Part shown: one piece after another, positions 13,647 to 44,139 of the stretch
How positions within the stretch are numbered: position 1 is the stretch's first letter
Layout: the number at the start of each line of letters is the position of its first letter
From: Nocardioides pocheonensis
GTDB lineage: Bacteria > Actinomycetota > Actinomycetes > Propionibacteriales > Nocardioidaceae
Direction of reading: 5' to 3'
DNA: 44,282 nucleotides
Assembly: GCF_003725535.1 (NCBI RefSeq)
Contig: NZ_RJSF01000030.1
Span: forward strand, 1 to 44,282
Notes under the pieces: generated by a model
The model's input: the letters and a program-made list of their open reading frames with translations, nothing else
Told to the model about the DNA's origin: nothing
The model's database searches: none
Position numbers and translations under genes: made by a program

Positions 13647-14054
13647 GTGACAGGCAACGATTCCACCGAGCTCCTGGGTCGCAGTGCGACCCGGGAGTTC
13701 GTCGTCTCCGGGGACGACACCGCCGAGGCGGTCGGCTCCGGCAGCCTGCCCGTGCTCGGCACACCGGTGCTGCTGGCCTGGTGCGAGGCGGCGACCTGCG
13801 CCGCGCTCGACCTCCCGGACGGCTCCACCTCGGTCGGCACCCGGGTCTCGCTGGAGCACCTGGCGGCGTCGCCGGTCGGCGCGACCGTCACGGTGAGTGC
13901 GACGGTCACGTATGCCGACCCTTCGGCAGGCTCAGGACGACGCGCCCGCCTCCTCCGGTTCACGGTCGAGGCGCGGATGGGCGAGGTCCTGGTGGGCTCC
14001 GGCGAGATCACCCGGGTCGTCGTCGACGCCGAGCGATTCCTCTCCCGGCTCTGA
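13647..14054 (+). CDS. hotdog-fold thioesterase (FlK-like)
   Basis: 135-residue hotdog protein resembling fluoroacetyl-CoA-thioesterase-like (FlK) proteins. The hallmark is GTPVLLAWCEAATCAALD at about residues 38-55, followed by GTRVSLEHLAASPVGATVTV and strands TVTYAD and LLRFTVEARMGEVLVGSGEITRVVV. It probably hydrolyses an acyl-CoA; the substrate is unknown. The start is GTG at 13647, soon after the duplicated bL37 tail. Oddity: residues DPSAGSGRR (about 91-99), between two strands where relatives have a tight turn, are encoded by a copy of the CCTTCGGCAGGCTCAGGACG repeat. This looks like an in-frame repeat insertion tolerated in a loop. It is convergent with the following gene, 6 bp apart. 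Confidence 0.82.
   Translation: MTGNDSTELLGRSATREFVVSGDDTAEAVGSGSLPVLGTPVLLAWCEAATCAALDLPDGSTSVGTRVSLEHLAASPVGATVTVSATVTYADPSAGSGRRARLLRFTVEARMGEVLVGSGEITRVVVDAERFLSRL
13919..13941 (+). repeat. interspersed repeat inside the thioesterase CDS (loop TCGGCAGGCTC)
   Basis: CCTTCGGCAGGCTCAGGACG carries the loop TCGGCAGGCTC flanked by a short CCT/AGG stem. It is in frame and adds about eight codons to the hotdog domain. Confidence 0.65.
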
Positions 14055-14060
14055 GAGCCC

Positions 14061-15770
14061 TCAGATCCCGAACGTGGTCCTCGGGTACGCCGCGGCCACG
14101 TCGGTGATCACGTTGACCAGGTAGGGCACGTTCGCCTCGAACGCCCGGTCGAGCGCCGGCCCGATCTGGGCCGGGTCGGTGACCTTCTCGCCGGCACCGC
14201 CGAGCGCCTTGACCACCTCGTCGTAGCGGGTGTGCGGCGCGAGGTCCGCGGCGACGTCGTACCCGTAGAGCATCTGCATCGGGCCCTTCTCCAGGCCCCA
14301 CGCCGAGTTGTTGCCGCACACCATCACGACGGGCAGGTCGTGGCGCACCAGCGTGTCGACGTCCATCAGCGACATGCCGGCCGCGCCGTCGCCGTACAGC
14401 AGCACGACCTGGCTCGACGGCCGGTGCAGCCGGGCCGCGATCGCCGAGCCCATGCCGGCCCCGAGGCAGCCGTAGGGGCCCGGGTCGAGCCAGCCGCCGG
14501 GTCGCTTCGGCTCGACGAACTTGCCGGCGAAGGAGACGAAGTCGCCGCCGTCGCCGATCACGATCGCGTCCTCGGCCAGGCGCGGCACCAGCTCGCCGTA
14601 GATCCGGGCCGGGTGGATCGGGTCGGCCGTCGCGCTCAGCAGCGTCGCGTCGCGGGCCGTGGCCTCCGCCACGGTGTGCTGCAGGCTCGTGACCCACTCG
14701 GCCCACCGCGGCTTCGCCGGCAGTCGCTCGACCGACTCCCGCAGGCCGTCGAGCACCAGCGTGAGGTCTCCGTACGCCGACCCGGCGAGCTGCGCGTGCC
14801 CGGAGACCTGACCGGCGGAGTCGGCCACGTGCACGACCGAGGCCTGCGGCGCGCCGTCCTTGCCGCCGAAGACGCCGTAGGCGAGGCGGAAGTCCAGCGC
14901 CGTGCCGACCACGATCGCGACGTCGCAGGTGCCGAATGCCTGACCGCGCGCCTTGGTCACCAGCAGCGGGTGCCCGCCCGGGACGACGCCGCGGCCCATG
15001 CCGTTGGTGATCGTGGGGATGCCCAGCTCCTCGACCAGCCGGAGGGCGGCGTGCTCGGCGCCGTCCGCCCAGACGTCCGTGCCCAGCACCAGCACCGGTC
15101 GGTGTGCTTCGCCGAGCAGGCGCGCGATCGCCTGCAGGGCCTCGCCGTCCGGCTCGACGGCGGCCGCCGGGGCGACGGTCGGACGCACGGAGGCCGCGGT
15201 GTTGAAGAACTCGTCCATCGGCACGTCGACGAAGACCGGGCCGCGGTGGCTGGAGCCGGCCAGGGTGAAGGCCTCGTGCAGGCCCGGGGTGACTTCCGCG
15301 GCGGTGTGCAGGGTGCGGGCCAGCTTGGCGACCGGCTCGAGGATCGGCGGCTGGTCGAGCTCCTGCAGCGAGCCGGTGCCCCACCGGTTGGCCGGAGCCC
15401 GCCCGCCGATGACCACCATCGGAGACCCGGCGAACTGCGCCTGGGCGACCGCGCTGACCCCGTTGGTGACACCCGGACCGGCGGTGAGCACGGCCAGCCC
15501 CGGCTTGCGGGTGAGCTTGCCGGTCGCCTCGGCAGCGAACGCGGCCGTCTGCTCGTGGCGCACGTCGAGGATCCGCATCGTCGGCTCGGCGGTCACCGCG
15601 CCGTCGTACATGGGGAAGACGTGCGCGCCCGACAGCGTGAACATCGTTTCCACGCCGTGCGCGCGGGCGACCGCGACGGCGTGCTGCCCGGCGTGCGCCT
15701 CGACGGCGTCGCCGGAGGGTGAGCCGGAAGAGGGGGAGGGAGCGTCGGGGGTGGTCTCGGCCTGCGTCAT
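14061..15770 (-). CDS. thiamine-pyrophosphate enzyme, acetolactate-synthase-like
   Basis: 569-residue three-domain TPP enzyme. The N-terminal Pyr domain has TLSGAHVFPMYDGA and the catalytic glutamate in DVRHEQTAAFAAEA. The central Rossmann-like domain spans about residues 200-340. The C-terminal PP domain has the TPP/Mg motif GDGAAGMSLMD followed by CGNN about 25 residues later. Annotated acetolactate synthase large subunits are the nearest named family, but no regulatory subunit (ilvN) or ilvC lies nearby, so another ThDP carboligase or decarboxylase is equally possible. The ATG at 15770 is fixed by a TAGCCT 6 nt upstream. Residues before about 25 are a low-complexity tail. Confidence 0.82.
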   Translation of the reverse strand: MTQAETTPDAPSPSSGSPSGDAVEAHAGQHAVAVARAHGVETMFTLSGAHVFPMYDGAVTAEPTMRILDVRHEQTAAFAAEATGKLTRKPGLAVLTAGPGVTNGVSAVAQAQFAGSPMVVIGGRAPANRWGTGSLQELDQPPILEPVAKLARTLHTAAEVTPGLHEAFTLAGSSHRGPVFVDVPMDEFFNTAASVRPTVAPAAAVEPDGEALQAIARLLGEAHRPVLVLGTDVWADGAEHAALRLVEELGIPTITNGMGRGVVPGGHPLLVTKARGQAFGTCDVAIVVGTALDFRLAYGVFGGKDGAPQASVVHVADSAGQVSGHAQLAGSAYGDLTLVLDGLRESVERLPAKPRWAEWVTSLQHTVAEATARDATLLSATADPIHPARIYGELVPRLAEDAIVIGDGGDFVSFAGKFVEPKRPGGWLDPGPYGCLGAGMGSAIAARLHRPSSQVVLLYGDGAAGMSLMDVDTLVRHDLPVVMVCGNNSAWGLEKGPMQMLYGYDVAADLAPHTRYDEVVKALGGAGEKVTDPAQIGPALDRAFEANVPYLVNVITDVAAAYPRTTFGI

Positions 15771-15776
15771 GCCGCG

Positions 15777-15782
15777 AGGCTA
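15777..15782 (-). promoter_or_regulatory. -10 hexamer TAGCCT, acetolactate-synthase-like gene (leaderless)
   Basis: It ends 6 nt before the ATG at 15770. Confidence 0.55.
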
Positions 15783-15800
15783 CAAGCCGACCGCGGTCGT

Positions 15801-15827
15801 CGGGCCGGGAAGGCTCGGCCCGGCCCG
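15801..15827 (-). terminator. hairpin after the DUF2785 gene
   Basis: 9-bp perfect arms CGGGCCGGG and CCCGGCCCG with a 9-nt loop, 5 nt beyond the DUF2785 stop on the minus strand. Confidence 0.6.
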
Positions 15828-15831
15828 AGGC

Positions 15832-16692
15832 TCAGTGGTTGACCGGCGTGCGGAAGTACGCCGGGTTGGTGGCTCGCAGCTTGTCGGCCAGCACGAGCAG
15901 CAGGTCGGAGCGCACCGCGGGGTGGCCCGACGCGACGGTGTTGAGCGAGAGCTGGAGGTGCAGGCTGCGCAGGTAGCCCTGGACGTTGCCGGAGACCATG
16001 TAGGGGTTGCGGTTGATCGAGCCGCGGCCGACCGCGCCGGCCGCGAGGCGTGCGATCCAGGGCTCGAGCACGTCGATGCCCAGCACGTCGCGGCGCAGCA
16101 GGTGCATGGTCGCGTAGGCGAGCCGGTCGCCCTCGCCGCACACGAAGAACGCCTCCGTGGGTGTCAGCAGCCGGTCGGCGATGACGTCGAGGATCACGGT
16201 GAGCTCGAGCCGGCCCATCACGGGGGAGCGCGCCAGCGCGCCGAGGGCGTCGGCACCGTGCGCCACCGCGTGCGCCCAGCCCTTGCCCGGCACGAAGCCG
16301 CGCAGGTCGCGCTCGCGGGAGTACCAGCTCATGATCCGGTCACCCCAGCGCAGCACGACGTTCGGCCCGCCCAGCGCGGCCCGGGTGGTGCGGTCGATGC
16401 ACTCGGTGAGGATCAGCGCGGAGAAGCTGCGCCGGAAGACGGTGTCGCTCTCCACCTCGCCGAGTCCGATGTCCAGGCCGTGGCACATGCCGTCGCCGAG
16501 GCCGACCAGCAGGTCGTCGTACACGCCCTCGTCGATCCAGGTCGCCATCGTGGGGAACGCGATGCCGTCGCGGACCTCCGGATCGGGGTCGCCGAGCATG
16601 CGCGTGAGGTCCTCGGTCATCTCGACCAGGGGGCGATCCTGCGGCACCTTGAGGCCGTCCGCGACCACTTGTTCCCAGAATCCCGAGGGCAT
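15832..16692 (-). CDS. DUF2785 family protein
   Basis: 286-residue, mostly alpha-helical soluble protein with repeat-like helices, matching the DUF2785 group. Recognisable blocks are VRDGIAFPTMATWIDEGVYD, DTVFRRSFSALILTECIDRT, SRERDLRGFVPGKGWAHAVA and the C-terminal YMVSGNVQGYLRSLHLQLSL. The function is unknown; helical-repeat folds of this kind often bind proteins or ligands. Three in-frame starts exist (16731, 16701, 16692). 16692 is preferred because the two upstream ones run into the promoter of the divergent histidine kinase. The intergenic gap is only 32 bp, so the two genes share a promoter region. Confidence 0.8.
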   Translation of the reverse strand: MPSGFWEQVVADGLKVPQDRPLVEMTEDLTRMLGDPDPEVRDGIAFPTMATWIDEGVYDDLLVGLGDGMCHGLDIGLGEVESDTVFRRSFSALILTECIDRTTRAALGGPNVVLRWGDRIMSWYSRERDLRGFVPGKGWAHAVAHGADALGALARSPVMGRLELTVILDVIADRLLTPTEAFFVCGEGDRLAYATMHLLRRDVLGIDVLEPWIARLAAGAVGRGSINRNPYMVSGNVQGYLRSLHLQLSLNTVASGHPAVRSDLLLVLADKLRATNPAYFRTPVNH

Positions 16693-16712
16693 GCGGAGCA
16701 TTCTTGCACCCG

Positions 16713-16718
16713 TACCCT
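16713..16718 (+). promoter_or_regulatory. -10 hexamer TACCCT, PdtaS-type kinase (leaderless)
   Basis: It ends 6 nt before the GTG at 16725 and supports that start over an ATG at 16704. Confidence 0.6.
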
Positions 16719-16724
16719 TGGGTC

Positions 16725-18212
16725 GTGCCAACGCTCCCCGAGCTCGCCCGCGACCACACGGATCTGGGCGCGGACGACCTGGCGTGGCTGGCTCTCCTGC
16801 AGGCCGACTGGCAGATCATCGCCGACCTCTCCTTCGCCGATCTGGTGCTCTGGCTGCCCGACCGGGAGGGCACCGGCTACTGGGCGGCGGGGCAGATGCG
16901 GCCGACCACCGGGCCGACCGCGCTGGTCGACGACGTGGTCGGCACCTTCGTCGCGGCCGGCCGCCGGTCGCTGCTCGACGCGGCCCTGCGCGACGGCCGG
17001 ATCGCCCGCGAGGGCGACCCGGAGTGGCGCGACGACGTGCCGGTGCGCGTCGAGGCGATCCCGGTGCGCCGCGGGTCCCGGATCATCGCGCTGGTCGCTC
17101 GCAACACGAACCTCCACGGGGTCCGCACCCCCAGCCGGCTCGAGCTGGCCTACCTGCAGACGGCCAGCGAGCTCACCCAGATGATCGCCCACGGCAGCTT
17201 CCCGTACGCCGGCCAGCGCTCGGACCACGCCGACTCCCCGCGCGTGGGCGACGGGTTCGTCCGGGTCGACGCGACGGGCAAGGTCACCTACGCCAGCCCG
17301 AACGCGATGTCGGTCTACCGCAAGCTCGGCCTGACCCGCGACCTGACCGGCGAGCACCTCGCGGACGTGACCCGGCAGCTCGTGCCTCCCGAGCTGCGCC
17401 TCGACGAGGAGTCGATCACCGCCGTGCTCGGCGGCCGGATGCCGAGGGACACCGAGATCGGCAATCGCACGGGCACCGTGATCGTGCGGTCGATCCCGCT
17501 GCGGCCGACCGGCGAGCACACGGGCGGGCTGATCCTGCTGCGCGACGTGACCGACCTCCGTCGCCGCGACCGGGAGCTGGTGACGAAGGACGCCACCATC
17601 CGCGAGATCCACCACCGGGTGAAGAACAACCTGCAGACGGTCGCGGCGCTGCTGCGGCTGCAGGCCCGCCGGATCGGCTCGGCGAGCGGGCGCGAGGCGC
17701 TGGAGGAGGCGGTCCGCCGGGTCGGCGCGATCGCCGTCGTGCACGAGACGCTGAGCCAGACCTACGAGGAGGAGGTCGAGTTCGACGCGGTCGCCGACCA
17801 GCTGCTCGCCCTGGTCAGCGAGGTCGGCGCCCAGGCGGGCGCGGTGCGGCTGCGCCGTACCGGCAGCTTCGGCACGATCGGCTCCGACGTCGCCACCCCG
17901 CTCGCGATGGTCCTGACCGAGGTGCTCCAGAACGCCATGGAGCACGCGTTCGGCGAGGGCTCCGGGGGCAACGTCGAGGTGCACGCCACCAACACCGGGG
18001 GACAGCTCCGGGTCAGCGTGGCCGACGACGGGGTCGGGCTGCCGGCAGGGTTCGACCTCGACGCCTCGAGCAGCCTGGGGCTGTCCATCGTCCGCACGCT
18101 GGTCGGAGAGCTCGGTGGCACCCTGCGGATCCTCGGACGTGCCGAGGCGAGCGAGGGTCAGGAGTCCGGCACGCTGGTCGAGCTCTGCCTGCCCACGCGG
18201 TCCGGCGCCTGA
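16725..18212 (+). CDS. pdtaS: cytosolic histidine kinase, PdtaS type
   Basis: 495-residue soluble sensor kinase. An N-terminal GAF-like domain (about 1-140; LADLSF-like ADLSFADLVLWLPDREG) is followed by a PAS domain (about 170-280). A HisKA_2 dimerisation domain carries the phospho-acceptor in EIHHRVKNNLQTVAALLRLQ (H296/H297), and a HATPase domain has N-box LTEVLQNAMEHAF and G boxes VADDGVGLPAGF and SSLGLSIVRTLVGELGG. M. tuberculosis PdtaS (Rv3220c) has the same architecture and the same neighbours (whiB1, sigH/rshA); it phosphorylates the RNA-binding antiterminator PdtaR. No PdtaR gene is in this window, so the partner is encoded elsewhere. GTG start. Confidence 0.9.
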   Translation: MPTLPELARDHTDLGADDLAWLALLQADWQIIADLSFADLVLWLPDREGTGYWAAGQMRPTTGPTALVDDVVGTFVAAGRRSLLDAALRDGRIAREGDPEWRDDVPVRVEAIPVRRGSRIIALVARNTNLHGVRTPSRLELAYLQTASELTQMIAHGSFPYAGQRSDHADSPRVGDGFVRVDATGKVTYASPNAMSVYRKLGLTRDLTGEHLADVTRQLVPPELRLDEESITAVLGGRMPRDTEIGNRTGTVIVRSIPLRPTGEHTGGLILLRDVTDLRRRDRELVTKDATIREIHHRVKNNLQTVAALLRLQARRIGSASGREALEEAVRRVGAIAVVHETLSQTYEEEVEFDAVADQLLALVSEVGAQAGAVRLRRTGSFGTIGSDVATPLAMVLTEVLQNAMEHAFGEGSGGNVEVHATNTGGQLRVSVADDGVGLPAGFDLDASSSLGLSIVRTLVGELGGTLRILGRAEASEGQESGTLVELCLPTRSGA

Positions 18213-18226
18213 GTCGGCGCGGTCTG

Positions 18227-19153
18227 ATGTCATCATCGGGTGGTGCATCGCAACCCTCGCCCCTCGCGGCGGATCCCGTGACGACCCGAGAGGACGACAG
18301 CCAGGTCGTCCGCGCTCGGCGGTGGGCGTCCTCCCGGACCCGGCCGCTGGTGGTGGGCGAGCTCGTCGTCATCGTCGCGCTGCTGGTCGTCTACGACCGC
18401 GTGCGCGCGCTCGCGGAGGTCCACGCCTCGGTCGCGGTCGCGCACGGCTGGGCGATCCTCGACCTGGAGCGGACGCTGCACGTGGAGGTCGAGGGCGGCC
18501 TCAACACCTGGCTGAGCGGGCAGGGCTTCCTCCGGCTGCTGGCGGTCGACTACTACCAGTACGTGCACGTGACCGTCGCGCTCGGCGTGCTGGTGGCGTG
18601 CTACTGGCGCAGCCCGGCGGCGTACCGGCCGGCGCGGAACGCGCTGCTGCTGACAAACATGGTCGGGCTCGCGGTGTTCGCGCTCTACCCGGCTGCGCCT
18701 CCTCGGCTGCTGCCCGGTGGAGGCTTCGTCGACCTCGTCGCCCAGGCGGGCTTCGGCACGAACCACGGACCGGTCCCGGCCGACCAGTACGGCGCGCTCC
18801 CGTCCCTGCACCTGGCCTGGGCCACGTGGGTCGCCGTCACCGGGTTCGCCCTCACCCGGCGCCGGGTGCTGCGCGTGCTGCTGGTCGCGCACCCGGTCGT
18901 GACGGGGGTCGTGGTGGTCGTCACCGGCAACCACTACGTGCTGGACGTGGCGAGCGGCACGCTGCTCGGGCTCGCGGCGGTCTGGGCCACCGGGCTGCTG
19001 GCGCTGGGCGCGGCTCGCCCGGACGTGCTCGTACCGGCGCGGCGGCCGGCCCGACTCGCACCCAGTCCCGCAGCGGTCGTCCTGGAACCTCGGTTCCCCG
19101 AGCCTCGACCGCTCGGAGCGTGGGCCCTGGAGCCGGAGTCCCCGGAGCCCTGA
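18227..19153 (+). CDS. PAP2/Aur1-like inositolphosphotransferase family membrane protein
   Basis: 308-residue polytopic membrane protein with about six transmembrane segments between residues 45 and 270. Acid-phosphatase-type signatures are present: SLHLAWAT in ALPSLHLAWAT (C2 motif) and the C3 motif HYVLDVASG, with the upstream RLLAVDYYQYVHV region. This combination fits the PAP2_3/Aur1-like family, which moves inositol phosphate or phosphate on lipid head groups at the outer face of the membrane. The C-terminal ~35 residues are proline-rich. The start is uncertain: ATG at 18227 or GTG at 18278; no clear RBS or -10 decides. It is convergent with whiB1 with a 3-bp gap. Confidence 0.82.
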   Translation: MSSSGGASQPSPLAADPVTTREDDSQVVRARRWASSRTRPLVVGELVVIVALLVVYDRVRALAEVHASVAVAHGWAILDLERTLHVEVEGGLNTWLSGQGFLRLLAVDYYQYVHVTVALGVLVACYWRSPAAYRPARNALLLTNMVGLAVFALYPAAPPRLLPGGGFVDLVAQAGFGTNHGPVPADQYGALPSLHLAWATWVAVTGFALTRRRVLRVLLVAHPVVTGVVVVVTGNHYVLDVASGTLLGLAAVWATGLLALGAARPDVLVPARRPARLAPSPAAVVLEPRFPEPRPLGAWALEPESPEP

Positions 19154-19156
19154 CGC

Positions 19157-19408
19157 CTACGCCGTGCGCACGCGGGCGCGGGCGTTGCGGCGCTTGAGAG
19201 CGCGCCGCTCGTCCTCGCTGAGCCCTCCCCAGACGCCGTGGTCCTGCCCGGCCTCGAGCGCCCACGCGAGGCACTGCTCGCGGACGTCGCATCGGCGACA
19301 CACCTGCTTGGCCTCCTCGATCTGCAGGATCGCCGGCCCGGTGTTGCCGATGGGGAAGAACAGCTCCGGGTCTTCGTCGAGACACGCGGAGCGGTGGCGC
19401 CAATCCAT
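19157..19408 (-). CDS. whiB1: WhiB1-type iron-sulfur transcription factor
   Basis: 83-residue Wbl protein. The four [4Fe-4S] ligands are C9, C37, C40 and C46, the same numbering as M. tuberculosis WhiB1. GVWGG (59-63) and the C-terminal basic stretch RRALKRRNARARVR contact sigma factor and DNA. N-terminal MDWRH and DEDPELFFPIGN are WhiB1/WblE hallmarks. WhiB1 is an essential NO-sensitive partner of the primary sigma factor. The ATG at 19408 has an AGGAG about 7 nt upstream, one of the few genes here with a clear RBS. A CRP-like palindrome lies 27-42 bp upstream. Adjacent to pdtaS, as in mycobacteria. Confidence 0.96.
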   Translation of the reverse strand: MDWRHRSACLDEDPELFFPIGNTGPAILQIEEAKQVCRRCDVREQCLAWALEAGQDHGVWGGLSEDERRALKRRNARARVRTA

Positions 19409-19434
19409 GGCGAGGAACTCCTGTTCTAGAGGTG

Positions 19435-19598: not shown

Positions 19599-19605
19599 GC
19601 GGTAC

Positions 19606-20054: not shown

Positions 20055-20061
20055 GCTCCGG

Positions 20062-21827: not shown

Positions 21828-21851
21828 TGCGGCTTCGCAGGCTCAGCCGCA
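21828..21851. repeat. stem-loop repeat (loop TCGCAGGCTC, stem TGCGGCT)
   Basis: TGCGGCT and AGCCGCA arms pair perfectly around the loop TCGCAGGCTC. It is a member of the interspersed family with a stem sequence not shared with the edge copies. It lies between the two sodN terminators. Confidence 0.65.
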
Positions 21852-21901: not shown

Positions 21902-22303
21902 TCAAGCCTTCTTGGTCTCCCAGAAGATCTCCGCGATCTCGTCGATCTTGGCGAGCAGCTGGTCGGCGACGTCGGCGTCGAGGGTGCCCTTGGTGCCGGA
22001 CGCCCCGGCCAGCTTGGTGGCCTCGTTGAACAGCGTGTGCAGCTGGGGGTACTTCTCGAAGTGCGGCGCCTTGAAGTAGTCGGTCCACAGCACCCAGAGG
22101 TGGTGCTTGACCAGCTCGGAGCGCTGCTCCTTGATGATCACGGCGCGGGTGCGGAAGTCGGGGTCGTCGCTGTCGGCGACCTTGGCGATGATCGCCTTGA
22201 TCGACTCGGCCTCGATGCGGGCCTGCGCGGGGTCGTAGACACCGCAGGGCAGGTCGCAGTGGGCGGAAACCTCGACAGTGGGTGCGAGCAGTCGCGCGAA
22301 CAT
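21902..22303 (-). CDS. sodN: nickel superoxide dismutase
   Basis: 133-residue Ni-SOD precursor that dismutes superoxide in the cytosol. A 14-residue propeptide (MFARLLAPTVEVSA) precedes the nickel hook HCDLPCGVY. After cleavage His15 becomes His1 and Cys16 and Cys20 become Cys2 and Cys6, the nickel ligands. The C-terminal ~110 residues form the four-helix bundle (YDPAQARIEAESIKAIIAKV, EKYPQLHTLFNEATKLAGAS). The ATG at 22303 follows AGAGGACC. A longer frame from 22432 would overlap sodX and is rejected. It is divergent from the maturation protease sodX, which removes the propeptide. Confidence 0.97.
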   Translation of the reverse strand: MFARLLAPTVEVSAHCDLPCGVYDPAQARIEAESIKAIIAKVADSDDPDFRTRAVIIKEQRSELVKHHLWVLWTDYFKAPHFEKYPQLHTLFNEATKLAGASGTKGTLDADVADQLLAKIDEIAEIFWETKKA

Positions 22304-22430
22304 CTCAGGTCCTCTCTGACACTGGTGTGGTGCTTCTGGTGGGGGCCCGCGATCCGGACCCACGAGCCGGATCGCGTTCGACCGGGCTCCCGGGATGACC
22401 ACGGGGTCGCTGGCGACGACACTACTCCGC

Positions 22431-22778
22431 ATGGAACAGCCGGCCCGGTGGGGTCTCGCGAGGGTGCACGGCCGCTCGATGGCGCCCGTGCTGAGCCCGG
22501 GCGACCGGCTCCTCGTCGACTACCGCCGACGGCCCCGCCCGGGTGACGTCGTCGCGGCGCGGTTCGCGGACGGCACGCTGGCGGTCAAGCGGGTGGACTC
22601 GGAGCGGACGACGCGGTCCGGGGGCCGTGGGTGGTGGCTGGTCAGCGACAACCCCGAGGAGGGGGTGGACTCCCGTCACCGGGGGCCGGTGGCGGACGAG
22701 GACGTCCTGGGCGTCGTACGGGTGCGAGTGTGGCCGCGGCCGCGCCGTCTGTCCCGCCGCGTGACCCAGCCCGGCTGA
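22431..22778 (+). CDS. sodX: nickel-type superoxide dismutase maturation protease
   Basis: 115-residue S24/S26-type signal-peptidase-like protease. The catalytic serine is in VHGRSMAPVLSPGDRLLVDY at about residue 16, and the general-base lysine is in GTLAVKRVDSE at about residue 51. It cleaves the Ni-SOD propeptide to expose His1. There is no transmembrane anchor, unlike classical signal peptidases, consistent with a cytosolic substrate. The ATG at 22431 gives the usual length; an ATG at 22395 adds twelve residues and cannot be excluded. Divergent arrangement with sodN across 127 bp suggests shared control, but no clear Nur box was seen. Confidence 0.92.
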   Translation: MEQPARWGLARVHGRSMAPVLSPGDRLLVDYRRRPRPGDVVAARFADGTLAVKRVDSERTTRSGGRGWWLVSDNPEEGVDSRHRGPVADEDVLGVVRVRVWPRPRRLSRRVTQPG

Positions 22779-22958: not shown

Positions 22959-24191
<1,233 letters not shown>

Positions 24192-24194: not shown

Positions 24195-24236
24195 GCCTCC
24201 CCGCGCCGGGCCTCCGCCGTCGGCCCGGCTAGGGTC
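24195..24236 (+). repeat. 42-bp direct repeat, copy 1 (terminator hairpin + orphan -10)
   Basis: Identical to 24294-24335 at 40 of 42 positions. It contains a hairpin with arms GCCGGGCC and GGCCCGGC (24205-24229) and TAGGGT (24230-24235). No start codon follows this copy, so its promoter half is an orphan, while the hairpin lies at the right place to end the malic enzyme transcript. Confidence 0.8.
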
Positions 24237-24239: not shown

Positions 24240-24292
24240 GGTTTCGGCGCGCCGTTGCGACCTCGCAGGCTCGGTCGCAGGCTTGCTCAACC
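24240..24292. repeat. stem-loop repeat between the duplicated promoter copies
   Basis: It begins GGTTTCGG and ends GCTCAACC like the edge dyads. It contains an inner stem-loop with arms TGCGACC and GGTCGCA around the loop TCGCAGGCTC, a third stem sequence on the same loop. Confidence 0.65.
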
Positions 24293-24293: not shown

Positions 24294-24335
24294 GCCTCCC
24301 CACGCCGGGCCTCCTCCGTCGGCCCGGCTAGGGTC
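24294..24335 (+). repeat. 42-bp direct repeat, copy 2 (hairpin + functional -10)
   Basis: Second copy, with hairpin at 24304-24328 and TAGGGT at 24329-24334. This -10 lies 6 nt before the ATG at 24341. Confidence 0.8.
24329..24334 (+). promoter_or_regulatory. -10 hexamer TAGGGT, zinc-type oxidoreductase (leaderless)
   Basis: It ends 6 nt before the ATG at 24341. The expected -35 region is occupied by the hairpin. Confidence 0.55.
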
Positions 24336-36958: not shown

Positions 36959-36993
36959 GGTGGTTGAGGTGCGAGCCTGCGAGCCTCGAAACC
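36959..36993. repeat. interspersed dyad element touching the kgd stop codon
   Basis: Long-form dyad (GGTGGTTGAGG ... CTCGAAACC) with the nested core TCGCAGGCTC on the minus strand. Its last base (36993) is the G of the kgd TAG stop. On the other side it abuts the DUF6104 RBS. Confidence 0.75.
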
Positions 36994-39900
36994 TACGCGA
37001 ACGCCTGGTCCATCAGCGACTTCTGCTCCTCCACGTGGCGGGAGTGCTGGCCGACCGACGGCGAGGAGGACTCCGGCCGCGAGATCACGGCGACCTCCTG
37101 GTCGAGCTGGGGGAAGAGGTTCAGCCGGAAGTGCGGCGCCGGGCCCATGTTGGTCGGCTCGTCCTGGATGTAGCGCACCTCGCGCAGGTTCGGGAAGCGG
37201 CCGAGCTCGGTCTTCAGCTCCTCGAGGGGGCGGGGGTAGAGCTGCTCGATCCGCACGATCGCCGTCGTCGGTTCCTCGCCCTCCCGCTTGCCCCGCTCGA
37301 CCGCGAGGTCCCAGGTGATCCGGCCGCTGCAGAGCAGCACCCGGGTGACCTTGTCGGGGTCGACGATCGAGTCGCCGATGACCGGCGCGAACGAGCCCTG
37401 GGTGAAGGCCTCGGGCTGTGAGGCCGCCTCCTTGCGCTTGAGCATCGACTTCGGGGTGAAGATGATCAGCGGCTTGTGCTCCTCGCCGAGGGCGTGCCGC
37501 CGGAGCAGGTGGAAGTGGCTCGCCGGCGTCGACGGCTGGGCGACCACGAAGGCCTCGTCGGCCGCCATCTGCAGGAACCGCTCGATCCGGGCGGACGAGT
37601 GGTCGGGACCCTGGCCCTCGTAGCCGTGCGGCAGCAGCAGCACGACCCCGGACTGCTGGCCCCACTTGGTCTGCCCCGCGGTGATGTACTCGTCGGTGAT
37701 GATCTGCGCGCCGTTGACGAAGTCGCCGAACTGCGCCTCCCAGCACACCAGCGCGTCGGGGCGAGCCACCGAGTAGCCGTACTCGAAGCCGAGCGCGGCG
37801 TACTCGCTGAGCAGCGAGTCGTAGACGTGGAAGGGCGCCTGGTCCTCGGTGAGGTTGGCCAGCGGCGTCCACTCGTTGGCGTTGCGCCGGTCGATGATCG
37901 TGGCGAACCGCTGCACGAAGGTGCCGCGCCGGGAGTCCTGGCCGGCGAGGCGCACCGGGCGGCCCTCCATGAGCAGCGAGCCGAAGGCGAGGATCTCGCC
38001 CGTGCCCCAGTCGATCGGGCCCTCGTTGATCGCGGCGGCCCGGCGCTGCAGCTGCGGGAGCACCTTGGGGTGCACGGTGAAGCCCTCGGGCGGGGTGACG
38101 TAGGCGTCGGCGATGCGCTTCATCGCCTCGACCGAGATCGCGGTCGTGGTGGTCGCCCCGATCTTCTCCGGGTACGCCGGGACCGTGGTCCACTCGTCGG
38201 GGCGGGTGTTGGCCTCACGGACCTCGGTGAAGACCCGCTCCAGCTGCTGCTGGTAGTCCTTGAGGACCTGCTCGGCCTCCTCGACCGTGATGTCGCCACG
38301 ACCGATCAGGGACTCGGTGTAGAGCTTGCGCACCGAGCGCTTCTGCTCGATCAGGTCGTACATCAGCGGCTGCGTGTACGACGGGTCGTCGCCCTCGTTG
38401 TGACCACGCCGCCGGTAGCAGACCAGGTCGATCACGACGTCCTTGTTGAAGGCCTGGCGGTACTCGAAGGCAAGCCGTGCGACGCGGATGCACGCCTCCG
38501 GGTCGTCGCCGTTCACGTGGAAGATCGGCGCCTGGACCATGCGGGCGACGTCGGTGCAGTAGAGCGAGGACCGGGACGACGCGGGCGAGGTGGTGAAGCC
38601 GACCTGGTTGTTCACCACCACGTGGATGGTGCCGCCGGTGCGGTAGCCACGCAGCTGGGAGAGGTTCAGCGTCTCGGCCACGACACCCTGGCCGGCGAAC
38701 GCCGCGTCACCGTGGATCAGCAGTGGCAGCACCGGGTAGGCGGCACCGCGGTTGAGCACGTCCTGCTTCGCGCGGGCGATGCCCTCGAGGACCGGGTCGA
38801 CCGTCTCGAGGTGGGAGGGGTTCGCCGCGATCGAGACCTTGATCTTGTCCCCCGAGCCCGCGACGAAGGCGCCCTCGGCGCCGAGGTGGTACTTCACGTC
38901 GCCCGAGCCCTGGACCGTGCGCGGGTCGATGTTGCCCTCGAACTCGCGGAAGATCTGGTTGTAGGACTTGCCCACGATGTTCGCGAGCATGTTCAGCCGG
39001 CCGCGGTGGGCCATGCCGATGCAGACCTCGTCGAGCGCGGCTTCGGCGGCCGCCTCGCAGATCTCGTCGACGAGGGGGATCGTGGTCTCTCCGCCCTCGA
39101 GGCTGAACCGCTTCTGCCCGACGAACTTCGTCTGCAGGAAGGTCTCGAACGCCTCGGCCTGGTTGAGCTTGAGCAGGATCCGCAGCTGCTCCTCGCGCGG
39201 CGGCTTCTGGTGCGGCTGCTCCACCCGCTGCTGGATCCAGCGGCGCTGCTCGGGGTCCTGGATGTGCATGTACTCGATGCCGACGGTGCGGCAGTAGGAG
39301 TCGCGCAGGATGCCGAGGATGTTGCGCATCTTCATGAACCGGCGCTCGCCGCCGAAGGATCCGGTGGCGAACTCGCGGTCGAGGTCCCACAGGGTCAGGC
39401 CGTGCGACTCCACCTCGAGGTCGGGGTGGCTGCGCTGCTTGTACTCCAGGGGGTCGGTGTCGGCCATCATGTGGCCGCGCACCCGGTAGGCGTGGATCAG
39501 CTCGAGGACGCGGGCCTGCTTGCTGACGTCGTCGTCGTGGCTGGCCGAGACGTCCTTGCTCCAGCGGATCGGCTCGTAGGGGATCCGCAGGGAGCGGAAG
39601 ATCTCGTCGTAGAAGTCCTCCTCGCCCAGCAGCAGACCGTGCACGCGGCGGAGGAACTCCCCGCTCTGCGCTCCCTGGATGACCCGGTGGTCGTACGTCG
39701 AGGTCAGCGTCATCACCTTGCTGACCGCGTTGCGGGTGAGCGTCTCGTCGGAGGCGCCCTGGAACTCGGGCGGGTAGTCCATCGAGCCGACGCCGATGAT
39801 CGCGCCCTGCCCCTTCATCAGGCGCGGCACCGAGTGGTTGGTGCCGATCGTGCCCGGGTTGGTGAGGCTGATCGTGGTGCCCTGGAAGTCGGAGACCTCG

Positions 39901-40778
39901 AGCTTGTTGTTGCGCGCCTTCTTGACGATCTCCTCGTACGCCGTCCAGAAGTGCGCGAAGCTCATCGTCTCCGCCGCCTTGATGCTCGGCACGAGCAGCT
40001 GGCGGGTGCCGTCGGGCTTGGCCAGGTCGATGGCGAGGCCGAGGTTGATGTGCGCCGGCTGGATGAGGGTCGGCTTGCCGTCGATGACGTCGTACCCGAC
40101 ATTCATCTCGGGCATCGACTTGATCGCCTTGACCAGGGCGAAGCCGATGATGTGGGTGAAGGACACCTTGCCGCCGCGTGCGCGGGCGAGGTGGTTGTTG
40201 ATCACGATCCGGTTGTCCCACAGCAGCTTGACCGGGACCTGCCGGACGCTGGTCGCGGTCGGCACGGTGAGGCTGACGTCCATGTTCTGCGCCGTCCGGG
40301 CGGGTGCCCCGCGCAGGACGGTGTAGGTCGGCTCGTCGGACGCCTCGGCGGCCTTCGGCTTCGACGGCTCCTTCGGCACCGGCTTGCTCGCCGGAGCGGC
40401 CGCCGCGGGCGTGGCCGAGCGGGCGGAGGGGTCACCGGCCGCGGCCGGCGTGGCGGCGTCCGACGGCTTCGCCACCGGGGTGGGCGCCGGCTTCGCCTCG
40501 GCGGGGGCCGTGCTGGCGGGGGCAGGGGTGGCCGCTCGGGCAGGCGCCTGGGCGGGGGCCTGGCTCGCCGTCGGGGCCGAGGCGGGCTTCGGGTCCTGGG
40601 TGGGCGACTGGTTCGTCGCCTGGTTCGCAGCCTGCTTCGCCGTGCCGCTGGTCGGCGCATCGCCGTTGCGATACTGCTTGAAGAAGTCCCACCAGGCGGG
40701 ATCCACGTTGTTCGGATCCTTCTGGTACTGCTCGTACATCTCGTCGACGAGCCACTCGTTGGCTCCGAACGCGGACAT
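36993..40778 (-). CDS. kgd: multifunctional 2-oxoglutarate metabolism enzyme (2-oxoglutarate decarboxylase/dehydrogenase E1-E2 fusion)
   Basis: 1261-residue actinobacterial Kgd/OdhA fusion. An N-terminal segment ([20 protein letters not shown]) is followed by an Ala/Pro-rich linker (about 50-150). An E2-type succinyltransferase domain follows ([20 protein letters not shown]; catalytic DHRVIQG). It lacks a lipoyl domain. The E1 domain then has [20 protein letters not shown], the TPP region [20 protein letters not shown] and [10 protein letters not shown]. It decarboxylates 2-oxoglutarate and forms part of the TCA-cycle complex. Start uncertain: ATG at 40778 fits the family's N-terminus; in-frame GTGs at 40790 and 40796 and an ATG at 40868 are alternatives. 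An antisense frame of over 1100 codons is a shadow. Confidence 0.94.
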
Positions 40779-40843
40779 GGGGTCTTCGACGGGCACGGCC
40801 TGGATCGCCTCATTCTTCTTCGTGGCGCTGCGTTGACCTAGCA

Positions 40844-40849
40844 AGGCTA
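40844..40849 (-). promoter_or_regulatory. candidate -10 hexamer TAGCCT upstream of kgd
   Basis: TAGCCT lies 65 nt before the ATG at 40778, implying a leader of about 60 nt, or a start further upstream than chosen. No RBS was recognised. Confidence 0.35.
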
Positions 40850-40883
40850 GCCCGGCGCCGGGTGGCATATCAGTGGCTGGAAC

Positions 40884-40916
40884 GAGAATCGCGCCCGCGC
40901 CGCCGGGACGATTCTC
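40884..40916 (-). terminator. hairpin between the secreted hydrolase and kgd
   Basis: Arms GAGAATCG and CGATTCTC (8 bp) with an inner CCCG/CGGG pairing, 43 nt after the hydrolase stop on the minus strand. Confidence 0.55.
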
Positions 40917-40958
40917 TCGATATCAAGATAATGGATTCCGGCCCCGATCCCCAGCGGT

Positions 40959-42434
40959 TCAGGGGGTACAACCGCCGATGTCGCCGATGTCACCTTCCTC
41001 GCGGAGTGCCCCGTGTCCGTCGGCTCCGTCGTGGAGGGCGTACGCGGAGCAGTAGTAGAAGCTGAGGAGGCTGCCGCGGTCGAGGGTGACGGGAGCCCAG
41101 ACGCCCCTGCCGCGCGGCTCCAGGTAGCGCAGCGAGGTGCCGAGGAGCGCGCCGGTGTCACCGTCGTGCTTCAGGTACCGACCGAGCCAGGCCTGCACGT
41201 AGGCGCTGGTCAGGTCCTGTCCCCAGCGGCTGGCCGGGAGCACGTAGGGGATGTCGGCGTACTCGAGGTGGGTGGAGGCGCGGGGCACGACGAGCATGCT
41301 GTCGACCCCGGCGGCGCGCCAGTCGTCGAATCCGGTCCGGCGCTCCCGCATCGGGTCCGGGTTGCCCGGGGTGGGCATCAGCGAGCTGCCACCGCTCAGC
41401 GGGTACGGCGCGACCGTGAACCCGTACTCCGACTGCACCGCGAGTGCGGGCACGACGGGGCGGTTGTCGGCGTTGTCGCCGGCTCCGGGCAGCGCGGGGA
41501 AGCTGGGTCCGGCCAGCTTGTCCAGCGCGACGACGGTCTCGACCCGCGGATCGGTGGCCTGCAGCTTCGAGACCGCGAACGCGCCCATCGAGTGCCCGAT
41601 GAGCGCGATGCGGGTCGTCCGGCCCGGCGTGACGCCCGCCCGGTCCGGCGAGCGGTCGAGCAGCGCGGCGTACGGGTCGGCGGGGGAGAGGAAGAAGTCG
41701 AGCGCGTCCTCGGTGCCGGTGGTGAAGTTGGCGAGCTGCTGGAAGGGCACGCCCGGGCACCCGAGCACGTTGCCGTCGACGGGCGCGGCGAACGGGTTGC
41801 AGAAGGGGAAGACGCCGCCGGTCGTGTGCGGAAGCGTCTCGCTGGTGCCCTCGCCCTGCACGTCGAAGGTCAGCACGACGTAGCCACGCTCCGCCAGGTC
41901 CTCGGCCAGCCAGGTGTACATGCCCTCGGACCCCTGGACGGAACCCGGCGTGATCACGACGCCGGGGAACGGCCCGGTGAGCCGCGCCCCGGTGTAGGGG
42001 TCCGTGGCCCCGGCGAGCGGGGCGTAGACGGTGCCGCGGAGGAGGGCGCCGTACCGGTTGAGGAACGAGACCTTCTGCGAGCGTCCGCGCGTGCCGTTCC
42101 ACCCCGCGCGCAGCGGGTTGCCGACGTTCCATCCGGGCACGACGTTGCCCGGGTCGAGCGCCGGCCGCGTGGGCGTGGCTGCCTGCGCGAGCAGCTGGGA
42201 GGCGGTGAGCAGGCTCGACTCACGGATGAGCGCGGGCAGGTAGTTGGGGTTCGCCAGCTGCCCACCCGGGCCGGTGACCCGGCCGTAGGCGTCGGACATG
42301 TTGGCGAGATCGCGCGCTAGGTACGCCGGCGTGCCCGGCTGCGGTGCGTCGCTCGCGTGGGCCGGGTTCAGCGGGCCGAGGGTGCCGAGGGCGAGCAGGC
42401 AGGTGGCGAGGAGGAGCGCACGGATCCGAGGCAT
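40959..42434 (-). CDS. secreted alpha/beta hydrolase (chlorophyllase/lipase-like)
   Basis: 491-residue secreted hydrolase. A signal peptide covers about residues 1-27 (MPRIRALLLATCLLALG, A-H-A cleavage region). The mature alpha/beta-hydrolase core has PFPGVVITPGSVQGSEGMYT (oxyanion region), the nucleophile elbow LIGHSMGAFAV with S282, and a histidine in ASTHLEYADIP near the end; the C-terminal ~70 residues (GRGVWAPVTLDRGSLLSFYY) look beta-rich. The substrate is probably an ester or peptide. The ATG at 42434 gives the signal peptide; an in-frame ATG at 42494 opens inside a repeat copy and is rejected. Its upstream region is the repeat array, so its promoter may derive from repeat sequence. Confidence 0.83.
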   Translation of the reverse strand: MPRIRALLLATCLLALGTLGPLNPAHASDAPQPGTPAYLARDLANMSDAYGRVTGPGGQLANPNYLPALIRESSLLTASQLLAQAATPTRPALDPGNVVPGWNVGNPLRAGWNGTRGRSQKVSFLNRYGALLRGTVYAPLAGATDPYTGARLTGPFPGVVITPGSVQGSEGMYTWLAEDLAERGYVVLTFDVQGEGTSETLPHTTGGVFPFCNPFAAPVDGNVLGCPGVPFQQLANFTTGTEDALDFFLSPADPYAALLDRSPDRAGVTPGRTTRIALIGHSMGAFAVSKLQATDPRVETVVALDKLAGPSFPALPGAGDNADNRPVVPALAVQSEYGFTVAPYPLSGGSSLMPTPGNPDPMRERRTGFDDWRAAGVDSMLVVPRASTHLEYADIPYVLPASRWGQDLTSAYVQAWLGRYLKHDGDTGALLGTSLRYLEPRGRGVWAPVTLDRGSLLSFYYCSAYALHDGADGHGALREEGDIGDIGGCTP

Positions 42435-43020
42435 GTTCGGCTCAACGAGCGAGCGGGGGATGGGCGACGGTGTGGGCGAGCCTGCCGGAACCACGCTCGC
42501 AGCGTCGCGGTCGGAGCCGGGGGAACCGGCGGCGACGACGAGGGACGGCGTCGGGCTGGTCTCGCTGTCGGCCGCCGGTCTGGCGTGCGTTCGGTGGTTG
42601 AGCTTGCCTCAACCGCTCTCGTCGGCAGGGAGCCAACCACCGCTGGTTGAGCCTGCCGAAACCACGCTGTCGGGGTGGCGGACTGTGCCGGGGGGACGGC
42701 AGCGACGGCGCGGTACGGCGCGGGGCCCGGGTCCTGCTCTCGGCCGCCGGTCTGCGTCGCACTCGGTGGTTGAGCTTGCCTCAACCGCGCTCGTCGGCTG
42801 GCGGTCTGTGCCGGGGGAACGGGCAGCGACGACGGGGGACGGAGCACGGTTGAGTTCTGCTGTCGGCTGCGGCTCGGCGCCTGGGTGGTTGAGGTGCGAG
42901 CGCCAGCGAGCCTCGAAACCACCCGTCGGGCAGGGACCCAGCCACCGACCGCTGAGCCAACCTCCAGGTGGTTGAGCCTGCCGAAACCACCCGCACTGCA
43001 CGGGGCCCCGGTGGGTCGCG
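42435..43020. repeat. composite repeat array (right edge), inverted relative to the left-edge array
   Basis: There is no supportable gene here. Dyads lie at 42593-42614 and 42765-42786 (GGTGGTTGAG, CTTGC, CTCAACC), 42644-42664 and 42967-42991 (short form), and 42884-42923 (long form). A degraded copy spans about 42472-42493. Between them are three ~100-bp units (about 42495-42592, 42665-42764 and 42787-42883) homologous to the reverse complement of the left-edge units, for example the shared CGGCCGCCGGTCTG. Frames open here are repeat products. Confidence 0.85.
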
Positions 43021-43105
43021 GTGAGCCGCGAAAGATTCTCGAGAATTCTTCCGAATTCCCTTACCAGCAAGGGCATTCGGGCCCATTTCTGTCGGTGGTC
43101 ACCCC
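43021..43105. other. AT-rich spacer before the DUF222/HNH remnant
   Basis: Unusually AT-rich for the window, with GAGAATTC and GAATTC motifs, a short inverted repeat ATTCTCGAGAAT (43034-43045) and CCTTACCAGCAAGG. It is probably the upstream region of the DUF222/HNH gene. No gene seen. Confidence 0.4.
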
Positions 43106-43111
43106 TAGATT
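43106..43111 (+). promoter_or_regulatory. -10 hexamer TAGATT, DUF222/HNH remnant
   Basis: TAGATTCGAACC is followed at the expected leaderless start by AGG (43118-43120) rather than ATG. The CBS gene has the identical TAGATTCGAACC (3588-3599) followed by ATG. Confidence 0.5.
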
Positions 43112-43890
43112 CGAACCAGGAACCCGACCACCAGCACCGACCGCGGCACCGCGGCTGGTGCTGTGCTCGGGTCGATCCGGCAGGCCCGGGCCGAGGCGAA
43201 CGCAGCCGAAGCCCGCGTCCTCGCCACCGCCCTGGAGTGGGCGCACCTGCACGTGGTCGACGACGTCGACGACGCCTGCACGCTGGTGACCGGGACCGGT
43301 CGGGACACCGGGATCCCGATCGCCGGCGAAGGCGCACCCTGGTCAGTGAGTTCGCGGTCTGGGAGCTCGCCGCCGCCCTCGGGTTGTCCATCGAGTCGGG
43401 TCGGAACCTGGTGGCCCAGGCCCTCGAGCTGGCCCACCGGTTGCCGAAGACCTGGGCACGGGTGCAGGCCGGGTCGTTGGCGCCGTGGCGGGCCAAGCGG
43501 ATCGCTGATGCCACCCTCCACTTGAACCAGGAGGCCGCTGGGTTCGTGGACGCCCAGGTCGCTCCGTTCGCGCACAAGACCGGACCCACCCAGTCCCAAC
43601 GGCTGGTCGACCAAGCGATCGCGATGTTCATGCCGGAGCTGGCCGCCGAGCAACGCGACCGGTCCGCCGAGCAGCGGTACTTCACCATCGACCACGACCA
43701 GGTCTCCTTCGCCGGCACCAGCCGCGTCCACGGCGAGCTCGACCTCGCCGACGCCATCGACCTCGACGACGCCGTCCGCCGCGGAGCCGAACAACTCGCC
43801 GCGCTGGGCAACGAGGAGTCCCTCGACGTTCGCCGGTCACTCGCGGTCGGGATGCTCGCCCGGGGTCAGCAGGCGATCGAGTTCGAGGCT

Positions 43891-43919
43891 GGGGTGGTTT
43901 CGGCAGGCTCAACCACCCC
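43891..43919 (+). repeat. dyad element inside the DUF222/HNH coding frame
   Basis: Arms GGGGTGGTT and AACCACCCC (9 bp) around the loop TCGGCAGGCTC. It is read in frame as GVVSAGSTTP. Confidence 0.8.
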
Positions 43920-44075
43920 GTTGGGCGGCTCAACCAGCCCCAAGGCCCGCGACGTCGTGCTCTACGTGCACCTCTCCGAGGACGCCCTCCGCTCCGGTGA
44001 TCACAACGCCCCGGCGTGGCTGGAGAACGCGGGCGGACACCTCGTCACTGCTGGGCAGGTCGCCGAGTGGTGCGG

Positions 44076-44139
44076 GGTTTCGGCAGGCTCAACCACCGGG
44101 AACGGCTCAACCACCAGGAACGGCTCAACCACCGGGACC
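44076..44139 (+). repeat. dyad element expanded into three 18-bp tandem copies in the HNH frame
   Basis: GGTTTCGGCAGGCTCAACC at 44076-44094 is followed by GGCTCAACCACC-type 18-bp units at 44086-44103, 44104-44121 and 44122-44139. They encode GSTTGN, GSTTRN and GSTTGT. Confidence 0.85.

What the first reader, a model, noticed from the sequence alone, without database searches (positions are those of the whole stretch)
13919..44139. Interspersed stem-loops with an invariant loop and covarying stems
Seen: one loop, TCGGCAGGCTC or TCGCAGGCTC, sits between complementary arms that differ completely from copy to copy. Arms are GGTGGTT/AACCACC at 299-322, 42967-42991 and 43891-43919; TGCGGCT/AGCCGCA at 21828-21851; TGCGACC/GGTCGCA inside 24240-24292; and CCT/AGG at 13919-13941. 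Pairing is kept while sequence changes, the signature of selection on structure. The loop is identical across unlike stems, so it is the likely recognition site. Inference: a structured element recognised by a protein or RNA and able to acquire new stems, or mobilised in a REP-like way. No REP-associated transposase (RAYT) is in the window.
Basis: partly seen in the sequence, partly recalled or inferred. Interest (0 to 1): 0.82.

Follow-up and report, generated by a model that had tools for sequence, protein, structure and literature searches.

The report
Mobile hairpins with a fixed head
Short DNA hairpins scattered through this soil bacterium keep the same tiny motif at the tip while their stems change in matched pairs; similar hairpins occur in several other bacterial phyla, and what moves them is not known.

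Summary
The loop TCGRCARGCTC occurs 327 times in the genome against 65 for the reversed pattern. What stays fixed is only TCG...CTC (GAG...CGA on the other strand); stem and loop interior vary. It is the commonest loop signature among perfect hairpins in a 0.84-Mb sample: 24, against 0-4 in 20 Markov shuffles. Downstream of sodN, ten of 20 readable species of the genus carry the hairpin at the same site with changed but still paired stems: 21 double-sided changes against 6.4 in shuffles. The 13919 copy is a 24-nt in-frame insert that 22 of 23 relatives lack. The hairpin also occurs in Proteobacteria, Bacteroidota, Chloroflexota and other phyla, with unlike stems and clade-specific 3' feet. The RAYT family (Y1_Tnp) is absent from all 24 genomes of the genus. 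Nearest described relatives are the CGTC-tagged REPs, also without a transposase. I read these as REP-like non-autonomous elements recognised by a tandem G.A hairpin head. Insertion and covariation are shown; the head's structure is predicted and its recogniser unknown. New variant of a known kind.

The parts
299..322 (+). Element of the GGTT/AACC family (TCG strand +), near tRNA-Ser 443-525
13920..13943 (+). 24-nt in-frame insertion (CCT-TCGGCAGGCTC-AGG + 7 nt) in an FlK-type thioesterase gene (13647-14054), coding PSAGSGRR
   Evidence: absent in 22 of 23 other genus genomes
21828..21851 (-). Hairpin TGCGGCT-GAGCCTGCGA-AGCCGCA downstream of sodN (GAG strand = sodN sense strand)
   Evidence: orthologous hairpins, with other stems, in nine relatives
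21902..22432 (-). sodN (nickel superoxide dismutase)
   Evidence: Pfam Sod_Ni 2.7e-45
24240..24292 (+). Nested element: outer GGTT-TCG...CTC-AACC, inner TGCGACC-TCGCAGGCTC-GGTCGCA at 24256-24279
24196..24236 (+). First of two about 41-bp direct repeats flanking the nested element downstream of the malic-enzyme gene (22959-24191)
   Evidence: sequence
24295..24335 (+). Second about 41-bp direct repeat
   Evidence: sequence
42644..42664 (-). Element with 5-bp stem upstream of the DUF222 gene
42884..42923 (+). Long-interior form GGTGGTT-GAG-[20 nt]-CGA-AACCACC (GAG strand +)
   Evidence: sequence; class counted
42967..42991 (-). GGTGGTT-TCGGCAGGCTC-AACCACC element
43891..43919 (+). Element inside the DUF222 gene, coding GVVSAGSTTP
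44076..44094 (+). Second element inside the DUF222 gene
43021..44282 (+). Open frame with a DUF222 (13E12-type) gene, cut off by the end of the window; start uncertain, and one base fewer than paralogues near 43339 suggests a frameshift
   Evidence: Pfam PF02720 1.7e-8

Best explanation
The hairpins are short, non-autonomous, REP-like mobile elements of about 20-30 bp, of a kind close to the CGTC-tagged REPs. Each unit is: foot - short stem (4-7 bp, free to change as long as it pairs) - fixed head GAG...CGA - matching stem. On the GAG strand the head can form a tandem G.A / A.G step above the stem, then a G-C pair and a small loop. Shown: copy-number expansion, pairing under changing sequence, a conserved head and foot, insertion into a gene, and absence of the RAYT family. 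Inferred: a trans-acting enzyme or host process recognises the head (and foot) in single-stranded DNA or RNA rather than the stem, which is why stems drift while the head does not. Because no Y1 transposase is present, the elements are moved by something unidentified, or are remnants of a lost mover now maintained by tandem amplification and by selection on some copies.
For: Excess: 327 against 65 genome-wide; patchy in the genus, 13 of 24 genomes at least twice the reversed control and 9 of 24 at most 1.5 times. Head: TCG/CTC is the top signature of perfect hairpins (24 of 1139; 20 Markov-3 shuffles 0-4), also without a loop bait in Planctomonas (23 of 1834 at stem 5 or more, three shuffles 1-3) and Mucilaginibacter (12 of 1252, three shuffles 0; rank 1 at stem 5, 7 at stem 4, 2 at stem 6). 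Without TCG/CTC as bait it flanks paired RCARG cores in 23 of 87 (own), 11 of 21 (G047), 6 of 10 (G036) and 33 of 56 (G020) cases; the next type has 2 or fewer. Pairing under change: ten sodN-downstream orthologues, 92.9% paired (shuffled 62.9), 21 double-sided cells (6.4), covariation 0.819 (0.207; slid controls at most 0.143), 6 of 7 pairs changed on both sides. Movement: 24-nt insert in the thioesterase gene; a spacer of about 150 bp with the element in the window's genome where 15 relatives have 9-39 bp downstream of the malic enzyme. Foot: ACCG in 32 of 33 G020 elements over four different stems; GAACGG, GACA and others by clade (read from the listing, not counted). Outward-facing dimers 24, inward 4, same direction 8 in 80 loci. 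Loop copies with stem 3 or more: 4 genic, 11 between co-directional, 6 convergent, 1 divergent, 10 unassigned at edges, of 32.
Against: No mover found: Y1_Tnp 0 of 24 in the genus; present in 14 of 30 other-phyla genomes, but only 1 of the 30 Y1_Tnp loci fetched carries the loop within about 1.5 kb; among 19 hairpin pairs 350-2600 bp apart no gene recurs except one overlapping the DUF222 copies. No clear target-site duplication. No strand bias in a 400-kb check (11 against 16). The sodN site keeps its hairpin in 10 of 20 readable genomes, which fits a host function as well as mobility. Decay occurs in the head too: G016 ends the head in CGT, one tandem copy in G015 has GGA for CGA while its stem is intact and another has a stem mismatch, and G014 has the head with only 2 paired bases. 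No GAG/CGA hairpin with stem 6 or more in 120 kb of G020, whose elements have 4-bp stems, and none at stem 5 or more in Ulvibacter (80 kb) or a Bacteroidetes genome (40 kb). Own-sample dimers are too few to show a preference (1 outward, 2 inward, 2 same) and the viral set is mixed (6, 5, 3). DNA folding parameters leave the head of the short forms as an open loop; only the RNA parameters give the 2x2 G.A step.
Confidence: 0.6

Rival explanations
1. The hairpins act in RNA: they are 3'-end hairpins (terminators, stabilisers or protein-binding sites) kept by selection on the host, and mobility is secondary.
For: Location at gene ends, retention at the sodN end with covarying stem in ten species, better RNA folding energy of the GAG strand in 5 of 6 forms folded.
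Against: GAG strand is sense in 21 and antisense in 15 of 36 cases between co-directional genes (overlapping classes); copy number swings from none to about 260 above control within one genus; insertions inside coding genes; no Rfam family at gathering score in the window or in 18 other loci.
Confidence: 0.2
2. Stem pairing is made by mutation, not selection: template switching within an imperfect palindrome copies one arm into the other, so stems look covarying.
For: Perfect stems, tandem amplification and near-palindromic structure are the usual substrates (general knowledge, no call).
Against: The same process should repair the mismatched TC/TC (GA/GA) step; instead it is the fixed part: 9 of 10 sodN orthologues keep it and the tenth (G016) changed only one base of it. 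It also does not explain the conserved foot.
Confidence: 0.1
3. Classical GTAG REPs moved by a RAYT.
For: Same scale, palindromic, paired units.
Against: Y1_Tnp absent from the genome and the 24 genus genomes; the feet seen are not GTAG; stems vary within a genome.
Confidence: 0.04
4. The DUF222 (13E12-type, HNH) genes are the mobiliser or the carrier of the hairpins.
For: The window copy and close paralogues carry hairpins in frame, and there is an array upstream of the window copy.
Against: DUF222 copy number does not follow hairpin excess over 24 genomes (Spearman 0.11, p 0.6); G010 has 20 DUF222 hits and little excess (57 against 33), G020 has 4 and 305 against 44.
Confidence: 0.05

Closest known systems
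CGTC-tagged REPs (Di Nocera, De Gregorio and Rocco 2013, PMC3733652; abstract, sections 6 and 15, first part of section 17 and passages read; figures and supplements not seen)
   Same: Short palindromes with an unpaired foot at one end, outward-facing dimers, mostly between co-directional or convergent genes, some in genes, uneven distribution, no associated transposase. CGTC-type elements with the head GAGCGAAGCGA exist: two patterns typed from recall, which included the head, found sites with CGTC or TGTC feet in 22 of 30 and 91 of 96 cases and CCA tails in 38 of 96. The feet and tails are thus a test; the head is not, as it was in the pattern.
   Different: Their text gives 8-9 bp stems almost always starting with AT, loops of 4-5, mostly a CCA tail, and five phyla without Actinobacteria. 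The window's elements have 4-7 bp stems not starting with AT, foot CGGT on the GAG strand, no CCA tail, and interiors up to 43 nt. The text I read does not describe GAG...CGA as the common head.
GTAG REPs, REPINs and RAYTs (same paper; Bertels and Rainey 2011 PMC3116915 and Nunvar 2010 PMC2817692, search listing and abstract starts only)
   Same: Paired inverted hairpins, miniature mobile DNA.
   Different: GTAG foot and RAYT gene are missing here.

Membership tests
CGTC-tagged REPs | Unpaired CGTC (or TGTC, CCTC) motif at one end | tested here: not met
   Window's genome and G020: foot on the GAG strand is CGGT (ACCG on the TCG strand, 32 of 33 in G020; A 81%, C 84%, C 97% of 32 own copies with stem 3 or more). 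Bacteroidota relatives do show TGTC.
CGTC-tagged REPs | Stem of 8-9 bp beginning with AT | tested here: not met
   Stems mostly 3-7 bp in own copies and 4 bp in G020: GGTT, CGTC, GGTC, CATC and others.
CGTC-tagged REPs | Tail CCA | tested here: not met
   In own copies the tail position reads ACC in about half and is otherwise mixed; for comparison CCA in 38 of 96 CGTC-type sites.
CGTC-tagged REPs | Head-to-head dimers predominate | tested here: inconclusive
   24 outward, 4 inward, 8 same direction in 80 loci of other genomes; viral set 6, 5, 3; own sample 1, 2, 2.
CGTC-tagged REPs | No flanking transposase gene | tested here: met
   For the Y1_Tnp family and for recurring genes between hairpins; other transposase families were not searched.
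GTAG REPs / REPINs | GTAG foot and RAYT in the genome | tested here: not met
Autonomous or IS200/IS605-derived hairpin elements | Y1 (HUH) transposase acting on the hairpin | tested here: not met
   0 of 24 genus genomes; activity in trans of another enzyme not testable here

The most novel reading that the evidence does not exclude
A bacterial class of mobile hairpins, spread over many phyla and including the CGTC REPs, is defined by one stem-independent recognition head, a tandem sheared G.A step (Py-GA-G...C-GA-Pu) capped by a small loop, and is moved by an undiscovered enzyme that reads this head in single-stranded DNA (or RNA) instead of the stem.
Probability: 0.3. Interest if true: 0.85.

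Novelty: new variant of a known kind. Interest (0 to 1): 0.62.

Why it matters
CGTC REPs were left in 2013 as palindromes without a known mover (PMC3733652). A head that stays fixed while stems change gives a way to define the whole class by structure, to search for it without knowing the stem, and to fish for the protein with a bait in which only the head matters. It also adds Actinomycetota (Nocardioides, Microbacteriaceae) and long-interior forms. If the head is a G.A platform, it would be an unusual case of a mobile element recognised by a non-Watson-Crick motif.

Tried and rejected
RAYT/Y1 transposase as mover: absent in the genus genomes searched and rarely near hairpins elsewhere. DUF222 as mover: no correlation. 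A gene recurring next to or between hairpins: one cluster near the hairpin in 5 of the 8 loci that hold it, which I did not identify, and only one overlapping the DUF222 pair between hairpins. Strand bias as a sign of lagging-strand transposition: an apparent run of + copies in the G020 listing (100 of 182 places listed) was a listing artefact; the sequence itself gave 11 + and 16 - in 400 kb. Rfam at gathering score: nothing in the window or 18 loci. Literature by letter strings and by words: 0 papers; 40 of 80 listed; 15 of 49; 12 of 39; 0; 8 of 248; 8 of 35; 15 of 26; among the papers listed I saw no title or abstract start about this head. That is not proof that it is unpublished: subscription journals, figures and supplements are not searched. 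Broad Actinomycetota sample: of 118 genomes besides the window's, 22 have at least twice the control with 20 or more extra copies, the largest excess is 71 (own 262), and 66 have at most 1.5 times the control, so large expansion is not phylum-wide.
Full report
What is in the window. All six sites of the finding are there. TCGGCAGGCTC with up to one mismatch occurs 15 times against 3.2 expected, while TCGCAGGCTC taken alone is not in excess (7 against 8.7). The window is the first 44,282 of 90,666 bases of contig C34 of a 4.92-Mb genome in 50 contigs. In the whole genome TCGRCARGCTC occurs 327 times, the pattern read backwards 65 times.

The stems are real. In 0.84 Mb (window plus 40 stretches) there were 53 loop copies and 6 reversed-control copies, with Watson-Crick stems of 3 or more pairs in 32 of 53 and 0 of 6. 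Two main forms are GGTT-TCGGCARGCTC-AACC-ACC and CCT-TCGGCAGGCTC-AGG-AACC. A frame GGTY-TCG-[interior]-CTC-RACC occurs 94 times against 4 for the reversed pattern; 62 of the 94 have interiors of 5, 20, 23 or 39-43 nt, and many of the rest lie in genes and look like chance. The long interiors shown hold inner hairpins.

The fixed part is smaller than the loop. I listed all perfect hairpins in the sample without reference to any loop. With stems of 7 or more and loops of 8-15, 24 of 1139 have TCG...CTC (GAG...CGA on the other strand); 20 third-order Markov versions of the same sequence gave 0-4. The stems under these heads are unlike: GGTGGTT, CGCGGGT, CGACACCCTGC, TTCGGCT, CGACAGCCCT, TGCGGCT, TGCGACC and others. 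By the control, two or so of the 24 are chance. In a second unbaited test I asked which trinucleotides flank an RCARG core inside a paired stem of 4 or more: TCG/CTC in 23 of 87 (own), 11 of 21 (G047), 6 of 10 (G036), 33 of 56 (G020), next type at most 2.

Predicted head. On the GAG strand the order is stem - GA - G ... C - GA - stem', that is two G.A mismatches stacked as a tandem step and then a G-C pair. RNAfold draws exactly this 2x2 internal loop on the GAG strand of the three short forms folded; DNA parameters leave it open in the two short forms folded. The base pair below the step is pyrimidine-purine in 10 of 12 distinct inner stems (p 0.019 against one half), and the five loops with a three-base interior all read GNA. 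That Py-GA-Pu steps and GNA loops are unusually stable in DNA is recalled, not from a call (one search found no paper with those words).

Covariation at one place. The hairpin at 21828-21851 lies between sodN and the next gene. The malic-enzyme loci fetched from 24 genus genomes reach this place. The sodN end was readable in 20 of 24; ten of these have a GAG...CG(A/T) hairpin with 4 or more pairs within 260 bp, ten do not. The stems are TGCGGCT, CGGTCCT, CGCGCCT (twice), CGCGGCT, AGCACT, AGCGCT, AACGCC, AGGGCT and CGTGCT. For these ten (one copy each where tandem copies exist) pairing is 92.9% against 62.9% in shuffles, double-sided changes 21 against 6.4, covariation score 0.819 against 0.207, and slid partners score at most 0.143; 6 of 7 pairs change on both sides. 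In G003 the interior is GAGCGAAGCGA instead of GAGCYTGCGA: the head stays, the interior is exchanged. Against the rule: G016 ends the head in CGT; in G015 and G003 the unit is tandemly repeated about three times and some of these copies are decayed (a stem mismatch in one and GGA for CGA in another of G015); G014 has the head over its stop codon with only 2 paired bases.

Insertion. The copy at 13923-13933 lies in a thioesterase gene (Pfam FlK). Orthologues were found in all 24 genomes. Aligned, the window's gene has eight extra residues, PSAGSGRR, that is a 24-nt insert at 13920-13943; 22 of 23 other genomes have no insert, and G023 has a different 24-nt insert at the same codon. Downstream of the malic enzyme the window's genome has a spacer of about 150 bp with the nested element between two about 41-bp direct repeats, while 15 relatives have 9-39 bp before the next start codon; G001 (42 bp) and G015 (about 85 bp) have longer spacers without it, and six (G003, G004, G014, G021, G022, G023) were not comparable. 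The DUF222 family has ten hits in the genome. Of the eight copies that could be compared, seven carry TCGGCAGGCTC at the same place and one (L357) a changed form; three more distant copies (L349-L351) did not align, so an empty paralogue was neither found nor excluded.

Distribution. In the genus 13 of 24 genomes have at least twice the control and 9 at most 1.5 times. Of 118 other Actinomycetota 22 have at least twice the control with 20 or more extra copies, largest excess 71. By record title, loci with stems of 4 or more come from Proteobacteria, Bacteroidota, Actinomycetota, Chloroflexota, Armatimonadetes, Eremiobacterota, Neomarinimicrobiota, Deferribacteres and candidate phyla; the Gemmatimonadales, Leptospiraceae and Treponema loci have the string but stems of 2 or less. 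These loci were chosen by the loop, so they show pairing and feet, not abundance. Whole-genome counts for 30 of them include 646 against 76 (Plantibacter), 510 against 44 (Planctomonas), 411 against 80 (a Sphingomonas MAG) and 76 against 0 (Ulvibacter), and weaker ones such as 104 against 71 and 5 against 1. Without bait the head ranks first in the Planctomonas sample (140 kb) and, at stem 5, in the Mucilaginibacter sample (140 kb); it is absent at stem 5 or more in Ulvibacter (80 kb) and one Bacteroidetes sample (40 kb).

Feet and dimers. After the stem comes a foot that depends on the clade: GAACGG (Sphingomonadales, Betaproteobacteria), GACA (Bacteroidota), ACCG (Nocardioides, Microbacteriaceae, Tannerellaceae) and others, as read from the listings. 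In G020 32 of 33 four-pair elements have ACCG over four different stems. Neighbouring copies face outward 24 times, inward 4, same direction 8 in the 80 loci; the viral set has 6, 5, 3 and the own sample 1, 2, 2.

Place relative to genes. With a crude gene caller, loop copies with stem 3 or more are 4 genic, 11 between co-directional, 6 between convergent and 1 between divergent genes, 10 unassigned at edges; 84% of the sample is called coding. In co-directional gaps the GAG strand is sense 21 and antisense 15 times over all, partly overlapping, classes.

Who moves them. Y1_Tnp, the RAYT family, is absent from the genome and from the 24 genus genomes searched. It is present in 14 of 30 other genomes with the hairpin, but 29 of the 30 loci fetched around such genes have no loop. 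DUF222 numbers do not follow the excess. Other transposase families were not searched.

Relation to known things. The CGTC-tagged REPs of Di Nocera and co-workers (PMC3733652) share foot-plus-palindrome layout, outward dimers, location, intragenic copies and the lack of a transposase. CGTC-type elements with the GAG...CGA head exist with CGTC or TGTC feet, but the head was part of my recalled search pattern, so this does not show how many CGTC REPs have it. The window's elements fail three defining features (foot, AT-first 8-9-bp stem, CCA tail), so I do not file them as CGTC REPs; they work like them and may share the head.

Verdict. Real, REP-like, with a conserved head and freely covarying stems, inserted recently enough to be absent from relatives, widespread, and without a known mover. 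The recognition step and the G.A structure are inferences.

Noticed in passing
43021-44282; L352-L357; C3 copy in L062: Multicopy DUF222 genes carry one or two in-frame hairpins (VVSAGSTT and GVSAGSTT in the window copy) plus runs of GGCTCAACCACC that differ in number between paralogues.
   Followed up: partly
24196-24236 and 24295-24335: About 41-bp near-identical direct repeats, each with its own GCCGGGCC/GGCCCGGC hairpin and a TAGGGTC end, flank the nested element; whether this is target duplication is open.
   Followed up: partly
L031 11095-11190, L045 9530-9611, L053 3036-3200 and similar: A composite of roughly 100-130 bp (nested GGTT frame followed by TCTTCGCGTCG and a CCCTGC-TCGTNCCTC-GCAGGG-like hairpin) recurs several times in the C23/C3 sample, often between convergent genes.
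   Followed up: partly
L570 (G023): A different 24-nt insert at exactly the same codon of the thioesterase gene; decayed copy or independent insertion.
   Followed up: no
G020 C1 1526425-1526695 and 877134-877351: Tandem arrays of the unit with periods of about 32 and 51 bp; similar arrays in G001 and in Microbacterium mangrovi (L200).
   Followed up: no
starts of contigs C1, C2, C3, C5, C23, C33, C34 and end of C2 of G000: Loop copies lie within a few hundred bases of several contig ends, so assembly breaks may fall in these repeat clusters and the copy count may be too low.
   Followed up: no
36973-36982: TCGCAGGCTC copy just downstream of the gene 36993-40868 without a stem beyond 2 bp.
   Followed up: no
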